From Bacteroidales bacterium (GTDB lineage: Bacteria > Bacteroidota > Bacteroidia > Bacteroidales > UBA932), in assembly GCA_017445755.1 (NCBI GenBank), contig JAFSSE010000036.1, positions 33,281-97,280 on the forward strand: 64,000 nucleotides of DNA. Reading direction: 5' to 3'. The translations under genes and the position numbers were made by a program. Shown here piece by piece: positions 47,420 to 50,433 of the stretch; the first letter of the stretch is position 1; every line of letters starts with the position of its first letter. The notes under the pieces were generated by a model. That model searched no databases and had not been told where the DNA came from. It was given only the letters and a program-made list of their open reading frames with translations.

Positions 47420-48454
47420 ATGAAAATCGGGAACATCGAACTTGGAGAAAGGCCGCTATTCCTGGCGCCGATGGAGGACGTCACGGACGCGTCGTTCCGG
47501 GTGCTCTGCCGCGAGCAGGGCGCCGATATGGTATATACCGAGTTCATATCTTCTGACGGGCTGATCAGGGACGCCGCCAAAGCCATCGCGAAGATGAAAA
47601 CTTCCGACAGCGAAGCCCCCATCGGCATCCAGATTTACGGAAACCTCCCGGACGCCATGGTCGATGCCGCCAGGATGGCCGACCGCGCGGCGGAAATCGC
47701 CGGGGGCCATGGGGCCGACCTCGTGGACATCAATTTCGGCTGTCCCGTTTCGAAAATCGCCGGCAGGGGGGCCGGCAGCGGCATGATGAAGGATCCCGAC
47801 AAGATGGTTGCCATTACGAAGGCGGTCGTCGAGAGCGTCGGGAAACCGGTGACGGTAAAGACCCGGCTCGGATGGGACGACAACTCGAAAATCATAGTCG
47901 AACTCGCTGAGCGGCTCCAGGATGCGGGAATCAGCGCCCTGACCATCCATGGCCGCACCCGCTCCCAGATGTACAAGGGCGAAGCCGACTGGACGCTCAT
48001 CGGGGAGGTAAAAAACAACCCCCGCATGCACATCCCCATAATCGGGAACGGCGACGTCAATACCCCGGAAAAGGCGAAGGAGAGTTTCGACCGCTACGGC
48101 GTTGACGGCATAATGATCGGACGCGCCTCTTTCGGCCACCCGTGGATCTTCTCCGAAATCCGCCACTACCTCGATACCGGGGAGCTGCTCCCTCCGCTCG
48201 GAGTCCGCGAAAGGGTCTCCCTGGCAAAACGCCATCTCGGGCTATCTCTGGACCTGAAAGGCCCGGTCACCGGGGTCTATGAGATGCGGCGCCATCTGAG
48301 CTGCTATTTCAAGGGGCTCCCGGATTTCAAGGACACCCGGATCCGGCTCGTAACCGAAAAGGACCCGGAGGTCCTAATACAGATTCTGGACTATATCGCC
48401 GAGCGCTGGGGTGACACTCCGCTCGATAATCCCGCCGGCGTTTACGGGCTGTAG
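47420..48454 (+). CDS. dusB: tRNA-dihydrouridine synthase (DusB-like)
   Basis: 344 residues from the ATG at 47420; the longer frame overlaps the sulfatase start and a promoter-like site. FMN barrel motifs: LFLAPMEDVTDASFRVLCRE, NFGCPVSKIAGRGAGSGMMK with the catalytic Cys, TVKTRLGW, LTIHGRTRSQMYKGEADW, PIIGNGDV and DGIMIGRASFGHPWIF. It reduces uridines in the D-loop of tRNA. The B subtype is likely but not certain. Confidence 0.93.
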   Translation: MKIGNIELGERPLFLAPMEDVTDASFRVLCREQGADMVYTEFISSDGLIRDAAKAIAKMKTSDSEAPIGIQIYGNLPDAMVDAARMADRAAEIAGGHGADLVDINFGCPVSKIAGRGAGSGMMKDPDKMVAITKAVVESVGKPVTVKTRLGWDDNSKIIVELAERLQDAGISALTIHGRTRSQMYKGEADWTLIGEVKNNPRMHIPIIGNGDVNTPEKAKESFDRYGVDGIMIGRASFGHPWIFSEIRHYLDTGELLPPLGVRERVSLAKRHLGLSLDLKGPVTGVYEMRRHLSCYFKGLPDFKDTRIRLVTEKDPEVLIQILDYIAERWGDTPLDNPAGVYGL

Positions 48455-48461
48455 GGGCTGG

Positions 48462-48693
48462 GAAAAATTACCTGTATCACTTTCATCGCCTGTGCCACCC
48501 TCGGCATCATAAGAGGGAGGGGCCCAAAGAAAGTCGGCATCAGCCGACCGGCCGGGTCCGGGACTTTTGCCATCTGGCAAAAGTCGGAAAGGACAATAGG
48601 CCGCAGGGGGTTCGGGGGAATTTTATTCCCTCGTATAAAAGGGAGGGGTCGCCCGAAGGGCGACGGCAGGGAAAGTGATACAGGTAATTTTTC
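48462..48693. repeat. 232-base MITE-like or structured-RNA element with perfect 23-base terminal inverted repeats
   Basis: The ends 48462-48484 and 48671-48693 are exact reverse complements over 23 bases (core ATTACCTGTATCACTTTC). Five hairpins lie inside: 48498-48517 (CCCTC/GAGGG), 48533-48548 (GTCGGC/GCCGAC), 48562-48585 (perfect 10-base stem GACTTTTGCC/GGCAAAAGTC), 48627-48644 (TCCCT/AGGGA) and 48648-48664 (perfect 7-base stem GTCGCCC/GGGCGAC). No protein frame of note. It fills the gap between dus and the next promoter. No target duplication is obvious at the flanks. Confidence 0.75.
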
Positions 48694-48717
48694 TCCTTCG
48701 CTAAAACGGCCAGGATA

Positions 48718-48749
48718 TTTCGGGAATAGAAAATATATCGCTAACTTTG
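48718..48749 (+). promoter_or_regulatory. Promoter of the YidE/AspT-type transporter gene
   Basis: TTTC at 48718-48721, 20 bases, then TAACTTTG at 48742-48749; the ATG is 25 bases further. One mismatch in the -33 element. Confidence 0.6.
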
Positions 48750-48774
48750 CGCTGTATTATTAGCATTTCAGAAT

Positions 48775-50433
48775 ATGGAGCAGCTGTTTTTCGGCAACGG
48801 GATCGCCCATTCAATCCTTCTTTTCGCGGTAGTGATAGGGCTGGGGCTGTACCTTGGCCGCTTCAAGATAAAGGGAGTTTCCATCGGATCCACATGGATT
48901 CTGTTCGTGGGCATTCTCCTCAGCCATTTCGGACTTAGATGCAATCCGACCATCCTTTCCTTCATGAAGGATTTCGGACTCATTCTCTTCGTATTTTCCA
49001 TCGGTCTCCAGGTTGGACCGGGTTTCTTTTCTTCTTTCCGGAAAGGCGGAATCCAGCTCAACCTGCTCGCTACGGGACTTGTCGCGATGGCCGTTCTGGT
49101 GACGGTCGCGATTCATTTCATCTCCGGAGAAAGCATCTTTACGATGACCGGTGTCATGTCCGGAGCCGTTACCAATACGCCCGGTCTCGGCGCCGCCCAG
49201 CAGACGCTCTCTTCCGCAGCGACTGCCCCGGTAGATTCAACCCGCCTTGCCTCCGCCTATGCCGTCGCCTATCCTATCGGTGTTCTCGGTGTCATTGCCA
49301 TGATTATCCTCAGCCACTCCATCTTCAAGATTGATGACAAACGCGAAAGGGAGGAGCTGGAAAAGGAGCAGAACGCGGGCGACGGAGCAAGGAGGATGCA
49401 CTGCCAGGTCAGTAACCCGGCAATCTTCGGGAAGACCGTCAGGGAGGTCGTGTCCGACATGGGCGAGAATTTCGTTATCTCGCGGGTTCTCCACGACGGG
49501 GAACAGACCGTCCCGGGCCCCGACACAGTGTTCCATGAAGGCGATAAGGTCCTGATTGTCACAAGCGAGAATAACGTGGATACCATCCGGATTATTTTCG
49601 GAGAGGAGGTTCCCATGCACCAGAATGACTGGCTGAAGATGGATGAACACATGGTCACCCGCCGGCTCTCCATAACCAAGCGCTCCCTTACCGGGAAACG
49701 CCTCGCTGAACTCAGCTTACGGAGGGACCACAACGTTTCGGTCACGAGGGTCATCCGGGCGGGCGTCGAACTGGTCGCCTCTCCCCAGCTGATTCTCCAG
49801 ATGGGCGACGATATCCAGGTCGTCGGAGCGGAAAGAGACATTGACGACATCGCTAAAATCGTCGGAAACAAGCCCGAAAGTCTCTCCCACCCGAACCTCA
49901 TTCCGATTTTCTTCGGTATAGCCGTCGGTGTAATCTTCGGCAGCATTCCGATTGCTATTCCCGGTATCCCCCAGCCGATAAAACTGGGACTCGCCGGAGG
50001 GCCGCTCATCGTCGCAATCCTTCTCGGACACTTCGGCCCTAAGCTTAGAATCACGACCTACACGACCTCATCGGCGAACATGATGATTCGGGAAATCGGC
50101 ATATCCTTCTTTATGGCAGCCGTGGGTATCGATGCGGGTAAAACCTTCGTTTTGTCAATTACTTCCGGCGGTTACTGGTGGATTCTCTATGGCGCGCTGA
50201 TTACCCTTATCCCCGTTCTGACCATTATTCTCGTCTCGCGGCTGGTTTTCAAACGCAATTTCTACGAAATCTGCGGCCTGATTTCCGGAGGAACGACCGA
50301 CCCGGCAGTCCTCGCCTTCTGCCAGAACATGTACGGAACTGACTATACAAGCGTAAATTACGCCACCGTGTACCCCTTAAGCATGTTCCTCAGGGTACTG
50401 GCGGCGCAGCTTCTGATAGTATTCGCTCTTTAG
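48775..50433 (+). CDS. YidE/YbjL/AspT-family transporter with two RCK_C domains
   Basis: 552 residues. Two membrane halves of about five helices each (about 8-185 and 370-552) carry the duplicated AspT-Asp_Ala exchanger fold (VGILLSHFGLRCNPTILSFM, MSGAVTNTPGLGAAQQTL, and in the second half LISGGTTDPAVLAFCQNMYG). Between them lie two TrkA_C/RCK_C domains (about 205-285 and 290-365; QVSNPAIFGKTVREVVSDMG, TRRLSITKRSLTGKRLAELS). Family members exchange dicarboxylates or amino acids. Substrate unknown. Ends in a 4-base tail overlap with the regulator gene. Confidence 0.88.
   Translation: MEQLFFGNGIAHSILLFAVVIGLGLYLGRFKIKGVSIGSTWILFVGILLSHFGLRCNPTILSFMKDFGLILFVFSIGLQVGPGFFSSFRKGGIQLNLLATGLVAMAVLVTVAIHFISGESIFTMTGVMSGAVTNTPGLGAAQQTLSSAATAPVDSTRLASAYAVAYPIGVLGVIAMIILSHSIFKIDDKREREELEKEQNAGDGARRMHCQVSNPAIFGKTVREVVSDMGENFVISRVLHDGEQTVPGPDTVFHEGDKVLIVTSENNVDTIRIIFGEEVPMHQNDWLKMDEHMVTRRLSITKRSLTGKRLAELSLRRDHNVSVTRVIRAGVELVASPQLILQMGDDIQVVGAERDIDDIAKIVGNKPESLSHPNLIPIFFGIAVGVIFGSIPIAIPGIPQPIKLGLAGGPLIVAILLGHFGPKLRITTYTTSSANMMIREIGISFFMAAVGIDAGKTFVLSITSGGYWWILYGALITLIPVLTIILVSRLVFKRNFYEICGLISGGTTDPAVLAFCQNMYGTDYTSVNYATVYPLSMFLRVLAAQLLIVFAL

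What the first reader, a model, noticed from the sequence alone, without database searches (positions are those of the whole stretch)
48462..48693. Multi-hairpin element closed by perfect 23-base inverted repeats
The two ends are exact reverse complements over 23 bases, and five separate internal stems, two of them perfect over 7 and 10 bases, fill the 232 bases. It has no gene. As RNA it would fold into a closed multi-branch structure; as DNA it looks like a non-autonomous transposable element (MITE). It sits 7 bases after the dus stop and just before the promoter of the YidE/AspT-type transporter, so it may also act as a regulator or terminator. I know no named element that fits.
Basis: seen in the sequence. 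Interest (0 to 1): 0.75.

Follow-up and report, generated by a model that had tools for sequence, protein, structure and literature searches.

The report
Nested mobile hairpins, often within genes
The window's hairpin is one copy of an apparently undescribed family of folded mobile DNA pieces in gut Bacteroidales, here with a second such piece nested inside it, and about half of the copies examined sit in frame inside genes, where they probably add loops to proteins.

Summary
The 232-nt unit is a composite. Its outer part is a copy of a dispersed element ("A", short form ~120 nt): a long outer stem (median 28 pairs) around a conserved three-hairpin core whose CCCNC loop pairs with a downstream GN'GGG (all four pair types seen). 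Its inner ~110 nt is a second, unrelated dispersed element ("B") nested in A's third hairpin. A has 10 exact core copies in this genome, occurs in 52 of 149 genomes sampled in the family, and reaches 47 copies in one; orthologous sites without it show that it inserts. About half of 133 copies lie in open frames that run through them, in both orientations; in the own genome one is inside folA (DHFR). The outer stem differs from locus to locus but stays paired; isolated mismatches favour G.T over A.C on the core strand, also where the host ORF runs the other way. So the constraint seems to act on the element's own strand (ssDNA or its own RNA), not on host mRNA. Best reading: a non-autonomous mobile hairpin that works like Rickettsia palindromic elements. 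No mobilising protein was found; Y1 transposases do not track it. MITE is partly right; terminator or regulator is not supported.

The parts
48462..48693 (+). Whole composite unit: element A with element B nested in its third hairpin (strand = strand that carries the CCACCCTC...GAGGG core)
48462..48484 (+). A: 5' arm of outer stem P1 (23 nt; its AAAAATTACC end is shared, with small changes, by the recent own-genome subfamily)
48671..48693 (+). A: 3' arm of outer stem P1, exact reverse complement of the 5' arm
48491..48509 (+). A: hairpin P2 (TGTGCC / loop ACCCTC / GGCATCA)
   Evidence: alignment and covariation; window coordinates read
48498..48502 (+). A: pseudoknot strand 1, CCCTC in the P2 loop
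   Evidence: types CCCTC/GAGGG, CCCGC/GCGGG, CCCAC/GTGGG, CCCCC/GGGGG
48513..48517 (+). A: pseudoknot strand 2, GAGGG
48518..48522 (+). A: conserved AGGGG before P3
48523..48525 (+). A: 5' strand of P3 (CCC), the hairpin that is split by element B
   Evidence: short own-genome copies read CCCTTTAGGG here
48529..48639 (+). B: second dispersed structured repeat (GTCGGCATCAGCCGACCGGCC...GGCCGCAGGGGGTTCGGGGGAA...CCCTCGTATAAAA), nested in P3 of A
   Evidence: boundaries approximate
48641..48648 (+). A: second conserved GGGAGGGG (its first GGG is the 3' strand of P3)
48648..48664 (+). A: hairpin P4 (GTCGCCC GAA GGGCGAC)

Best explanation
The unit is a copy of a non-autonomous, palindromic mobile element (A) that spreads as stem plus core. 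The strand with the CCACCCTC...GAGGG core folds on its own into a closed, pseudoknotted structure, as single-stranded DNA or as its own RNA, and this fold is what an unidentified trans-acting machinery recognises to insert new copies. Insertions survive between genes or, when they happen to be in frame and stop-free, inside loops of housekeeping proteins. In the window one copy landed 7 nt after dus, and it carries a second mobile hairpin (B) in its P3 loop. Shown: dispersal, insertion at sites that are empty in relatives, a fold with covariation, pairing kept in orthologous copies, mismatches that are asymmetric by strand, open reading through the element, nesting of B. Inferred: that the fold is the substrate of mobilisation, that it is ssDNA or RNA, that the in-frame copies are translated, and that a trans-acting protein exists.
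For: Copies: 10 exact cores in the own genome; model hits in 52 of 149 family genomes, own included, and in 5 of 294 sampled across the order, own included (families f1, f25, f70, f101); 47 in G052. Sites without it: of 30 DHFR loci fetched, the own one alone has A; G052 site 1: of 10 relatives compared 8 are empty, 1 has a different copy, 1 another hairpin; site B: of 8 relatives 4 are empty. The stem travels with the element: subfamilies in the own genome and in G052 share stems, and free hairpins (stem score 17 or more, loop up to 8 nt) are rare, 5 in 1.74 Mb of loci (overlaps counted). Fold: 95.6% of cells paired, 1012 cells changed on both sides, 0 of 500 shuffles; the pseudoknot helix pairs in 98 of 98 rows, with four pair types at one position. 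Orthologous copies: 131 both-side Watson-Crick changes against 30 one-sided and 14 other (25 of 38 pairs, not all independent). Isolated mismatches: G.T 32 v A.C 10, purine-purine 21 v pyrimidine-pyrimidine 4 (p 0.0009 each); 33 of 47 locus clusters lean to the core strand, 12 the other way, 2 tie; copies antisense to the host ORF 14 v 1. Coding: 66 of 133 copies lie in an ORF open for 50 or more codons on both sides; Pfam and PDB place inserts inside single domains.
Against: No protein partner: PF01797 occurs in 29 of the 52 element-bearing genomes (26 expected; hand count), and G052 with 47 copies has none at that threshold; the 20 stretches fetched around Y1 genes hold no clear element (one match of E 0.92). 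No target-site duplication recognised. Stems stay paired in old orthologous copies, which mobility alone does not explain, since selection for mobility does not act on a fixed copy. The strand asymmetry is not significant when all 180 mismatches are pooled (G.T 49 v A.C 36, p 0.19), nor in sense copies alone (p 0.29 for G.T v A.C, 0.18 with the other classes). Part of the core conservation was required by the search pattern. Copies are rarer in ORFs than random positions are (61 of 107 v 1440 of 1899).
Confidence: 0.6

Rival explanations
1. A structured RNA element with a host function (sRNA, processing site or terminator) that was dispersed and is then kept by selection at each locus.
For: Stem pairing and core are kept in orthologous copies with diverged flanks, changes being compensated; pseudoknot covariation; in the own genome 6 of 9 non-CDS copies start 7-22 nt after the stop of an ORF read in the same direction, and in a seventh the stop falls inside the arm (ORFs not curated).
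Against: Half of the 133 copies are inside open frames in either orientation, 34 sense and 32 antisense; no significant orientation bias relative to neighbouring stops (15 sense-only v 25 antisense-only, p 0.15) or starts (22 v 17, p 0.52) in 84 non-CDS copies; presence is patchy and many orthologous sites are empty; no promoter or terminator signal above shuffles.
Confidence: 0.15
2. The stems are kept perfect by a mutation process (hairpin-templated correction of quasi-palindromes at replication), not by selection; the element is otherwise inert debris of a past mobile element.
For: Paired changes dominate, including a matched one-pair deletion in both arms of the C40 copy; correction needs no function at the locus.
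Against: Such correction should be strand-symmetric, yet isolated mismatches are asymmetric on the core strand (not in the pooled count); unpaired core bases are conserved too and the pseudoknot covaries.
Confidence: 0.2
3. The core is a mobile unit that inserts at the tip of pre-existing hairpins, so the outer stems belong to the targets.
For: G219 has arms like those of G067 and G228 without the core at site A; stems differ from locus to locus.
Against: Long hairpins without core are rare (5 in 1.74 Mb); recent subfamilies share their stems; empty sites lack the arms too.
Confidence: 0.05

Closest known systems
Rickettsia palindromic elements (RPE; Ogata et al. 2000 and 2002 seen only as references; described in passages read in PMC10969869 and PMC3733652)
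   Same: ~150-bp palindromic repeats, many inserted in frame in unrelated genes; how they move is, as far as I recall, unknown.
   Different: Other phylum; here a conserved core with covarying pseudoknot, locus-specific outer stems, both orientations in CDS, a nested second family.
REPIN/RAYT elements (passages read in PMC3116915)
   Same: Mobile hairpins without a gene; compensatory changes in the hairpin; proposed excised hairpin intermediate.
   Different: REPINs have conserved ends and a variable spacer; A has a conserved middle and variable ends. Y1 genes do not track A's presence and the 20 examined do not neighbour it.
Bacterial MITEs (ERIC, NEMIS and similar are recalled; passages read in PMC10969869)
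   Same: Short, dispersed, closed by inverted arms, no gene; in-frame fusions are known for some.
   Different: Arms are not a conserved TIR, no TSD seen, no parent element found.
Mitochondrial hairpin elements (search listing only)
   Same: Repeated hairpin-forming elements thought to be mobile.
   Different: Organelle genomes; no shared core or sequence tested.

Membership tests
RPE-like coding palindromic element (as a kind) | dispersed palindromic repeat of about 100-150 nt | tested here: met
RPE-like coding palindromic element (as a kind) | in-frame insertion in unrelated conserved genes | tested here: met
   open frames and domain matches; translation itself not tested
Rickettsia palindromic elements (the family itself) | sequence homology to the RPE families | not testable with these tools
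   no Rickettsia chromosome collection or RPE sequence at hand
MITE | conserved terminal inverted repeats across copies | tested here: not met
   arms differ from locus to locus; shared only within recent subfamilies
MITE | target-site duplication | tested here: inconclusive
   junctions of four filled/empty sites, looked at by eye, show none clearly
MITE | related autonomous transposon | tested here: inconclusive
   132 of 133 copies close within 300 nt, so none of these carries a gene; only PF01797 was surveyed
REPIN/RAYT | adjacent or co-occurring RAYT transposase | tested here: not met
   no association and no neighbourhood in 20 stretches
REPIN/RAYT | conserved inverted ends with variable spacer | tested here: not met
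   reverse arrangement
Known Rfam RNA | match at the gathering score | tested here: not met
   10 own-genome loci, six matches at E up to 1, each far below its gathering score
Phage-borne element | presence in viral contigs | tested here: not met
   exact core pattern: 0 stretches in viral contigs

The most novel reading that the evidence does not exclude
A is a new class of mobile element whose transposing form is a folded single strand (ssDNA or RNA) with a pseudoknotted recognition core and arms that are continually rewritten yet kept paired on that strand at each locus, whatever the host gene's direction; it uses protein-coding genes as a permitted habitat and itself serves as a landing site for another such element (B).
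Probability: 0.3. Interest if true: 0.88.

Novelty: new variant of a known kind. Interest (0 to 1): 0.72.

Why it matters
In-frame coding palindromes are known chiefly from Rickettsia (passages and a cited title in PMC10969869 and PMC3733652). A large and apparently recent family in rumen Bacteroidales, with empty sites, subfamily bursts, a defined core and a strand-specific pairing signal, makes the mechanism testable. It also offers an explanation for ~40-residue inserts in housekeeping enzymes of these mostly uncultured bacteria, and shows one dispersed hairpin nested in another.

Tried and rejected
Rfam: nothing near gathering score. Promoter/terminator scan of 48380-48900: no excess over shuffles. 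RAYT/Y1 transposase as mobiliser: no association, no neighbourhood in the 20 stretches examined. Core inserting into pre-existing hairpins: free long hairpins too rare. Outer stem as an inverted duplication of target sequence: suggested by eye in folA and trmB, not borne out at sites 1 and B, where the arms do not resemble the flanks by eye. Sense-only cis function: no significant orientation bias, although 6 of 9 own-genome non-CDS copies follow a stop codon in sense. Phage carriage: 0 hits. In-ORF location is not an enrichment: 61 of 107 copies against 1440 of 1899 random positions. Literature: searches listed no description of this element; only passages of three papers were read; Ogata 2002 is not held.

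Full report
What is there. The 232-nt unit at 48462-48693 has exact 23-nt inverted arms and folds far better than shuffles on both strands. It lies 7 nt after the stop of a Dus gene and 81 nt before the start of an Asp-Al_Ex/TrkA_C transporter gene.

Copies in the own genome. A search of the own assembly (G000, 44 contigs, 83% complete) gave three full-length copies including the window's, and several that match only the two ends. Alignment showed long copies (~230 nt: C13 = window, C40, C26) and short copies (~120 nt: C41, C44 twice, C34, C29), which differ by ~110 nt inside the third hairpin, where short copies read CCCTTTAGGG. Two more divergent copies (C20, C2) share mainly the core. The core pattern has 10 exact matches in the genome and no match of the reversed control.

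Family and fold. With the 10 own copies I had 133 distinct hits; 132 of them have an outer stem of at least 22 pairs under a lenient alignment, the exception (L148) being cut by a contig end. 77 were aligned: P1 outer stem with variable sequence; P2 hairpin with loop ACCCTC; TAA; GAGGG; AGGGG; P3 of variable length; GGGAGGGG; P4; P1. A covariance model (R1) then found 99 matches in the 99 loci given to it. On that alignment 95.6% of cells pair, 1012 cells are changed on both sides, and 0 of 500 shuffles reach any of the five measures; sliding partners by 1-3 columns drops pairing to 41-49% (the alignment was fitted to the structure, except the pseudoknot, which the model does not contain). The loop-to-downstream helix is paired in all 98 distinct rows and shows CCCTC/GAGGG, CCCGC/GCGGG, CCCAC/GTGGG and CCCCC/GGGGG, seven rows differing from the commonest type. 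Only three nucleotides (TAA) would span P2 if both helices form at once, so they may also be alternative states; this was not resolved.

Distribution. R1 hits at E 1e-3 occur in 52 of 149 genomes of the family (12 of 25 genera), in 22 of 31 genomes of genus g16 at E 1e-6, with 47 in G052, and in 5 of 294 genomes across the order, in families f1, f25, f70 and f101 (searches used stricter filters and are undercounts). The exact core has no match in the viral contig collection.

It inserts. In the own genome the C20 copy lies inside folA: an intact 206-aa DHFR ORF directly after a thymidylate-synthase-like ORF (that name is recalled). 55 of 61 genus genomes have a DHFR match; of 30 DHFR loci fetched only the own one has A; a few others have longer loops there without A. 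PDB DHFRs align to residues 5-90 and 135-206 with a break between reference residues 92 and 96. An AlphaFold2 model from 27 sequences keeps the DHFR part at block pLDDT 89-98 and leaves 98-105 and 111-131 below 50, between helix 81-94 and strand 136-140. Of 29 relatives' loci fetched for the dus/transporter query (26 matched dus, 3 the transporter), none carries A; the own locus does. In G052, DNA-level sites could be compared. Site 1: of 10 relatives with both flanks, 8 have 2-22 nt between them, G223 has a copy in the opposite orientation with another stem, G217 a different 48-nt hairpin. Site 2: none of 5 relatives has A, although G219 and G067 have longer or poorly aligned gaps. Site B: of 8 relatives 4 are empty (stop and start codons touching or overlapping), G219 has a full copy with another stem, G217 one with the CCCGC/GCGGG variant, G067 a truncated one, G226 another hairpin. 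Site A: of 6 relatives G223, G067 and G228 are full, G226 and G103 lack it, and G219 keeps two arms but not the core.

Coding copies. 66 of 133 copies lie in an ORF open for at least 50 codons on both sides, 34 with the core strand sense and 32 antisense. On the subset with enough flank this is 61 of 107, against 1440 of 1899 random positions, so copies are common in ORFs but not enriched there; in-ORF copies are open in 3.6 of 6 frames on average, other copies in 2.4, random stretches in 2.8. Of 20 such proteins scanned, 19 had a Pfam family. The element lies within one family's match in DHFR, MraW methylase, rRNA adenine dimethylase, a PP-loop ATPase, tRNA pseudouridine synthase (L123) and Radical_SAM_N (L041), and between domains in a riboflavin kinase/FAD synthetase (L107), a UPF0004/Radical_SAM protein (L066) and TruB (L057). 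Gene names such as RsmH, KsgA, TilS, TruA, RibF, MiaB and YgiQ for these are recalled. TrmB has a loop that is a hot spot: among 35 aligned TrmB proteins, six have A there (five already known from the core pattern, G129 through this search), several have other inserts, and the more distant ones have none. That the inserts are translated is inferred from open frames.

Stems. In 38 pairs of orthologous copies (both flanks matching), the 25 pairs with more than 55% arm identity show 428 unchanged positions, 131 changed on both sides to another Watson-Crick pair, 30 changed on one side and 14 others; several pairs come from the same locus, so these are not independent, and the closest pairs show mainly one-sided changes. 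Over 124 distinct elements 2949 of 3129 stem pairs are Watson-Crick; stem length has a median of 28 and a range of 14-45. All 180 mismatches together show no significant G.T excess (49 v 36, p 0.19). Isolated mismatches (three good pairs on both sides, contexts counted once) are G.T 32 v A.C 10 and purine-purine 21 v pyrimidine-pyrimidine 4, p 0.0009 each; by locus cluster 33 favour the core strand, 12 the other, 2 tie, and bootstrap intervals exclude 1 for both ratios. Copies antisense to the host ORF show the same direction (G.T 10, A.C 1, purine-purine 4, pyrimidine-pyrimidine 0), sense copies do so weakly (6, 2, 4, 2; not significant), others 16, 7, 13, 2. The complement strand, which is the mRNA strand for antisense copies, is therefore not the constrained one on these counts. 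The constraint fits ssDNA or the element's own RNA; it does not fit strand-symmetric templated correction alone.

Mobiliser. PF01797 (Y1_Tnp) was found in 75 of 149 genomes, 29 of them among the 52 with A (26 expected; hand count), and not in G052. Twenty stretches of 5-10 kb around Y1 genes contain a single match at E up to 1, of E 0.92. Other candidates were not surveyed.

The nested element. The inner ~110 nt (B) matches other loci of the genus without A beside it in the stretches read, for example next to what looks by eye like a tRNA gene in G154. A model of B (R2, 10 sequences) hits 14 of 41 genus genomes, up to 8 per genome; the own genome has three hits, all inside A copies. The three composites belong to two A subfamilies, so either B entered the same P3 site more than once or composites recombined; this was not resolved.

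Literature. Passages in PMC10969869 and PMC3733652 describe Rickettsia palindromic elements as ~150-bp repeats inserted in frame in unrelated genes; passages in PMC3116915 describe REPINs. The listings showed no account of such elements in Bacteroidales; the library holds only part of the literature.

Verdict. A real, abundant and, to my searches, unnamed family of mobile palindromic elements, a new variant of the RPE kind with an unusual conserved fold, and in the window a nested pair.

Noticed in passing
window 48529-48639; L363-L370: Element B, a separate dispersed structured repeat (GTCGNCATCAGNCGACCGGCC...GGCCGCAGGGGG), found free elsewhere in the genus and nested in A here; no Rfam match at gathering score in the three own-genome copies.
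   Followed up: partly
L333, L341 (trmB loop); L202, L205, L218 (folA loop): Other inserts at the same TrmB loop (RHPELDSGS-like repeats) and longer DHFR loops without A, suggesting further coding repeat families at the same hot spots.
   Followed up: no
L274/L282 (G219), site A: Arms of A present as a near-perfect hairpin with the core missing.
   Followed up: partly
L240 (G217) site 1; L272 (G226) site B: Unrelated 48-nt and 35-nt hairpin-containing inserts at the very junctions where relatives carry A.
   Followed up: no
G000 C41:2264-3230 (L022, L338): In the own genome a short A copy starts 9 nt after the stop of the ORF that appears to be trmB, whereas some relatives carry A inside trmB.
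   Followed up: no
L313-L332: Y1_Tnp proteins of mostly 265-340 aa, RAYT-like by eye, in many of these genomes, without A nearby.
   Followed up: partly
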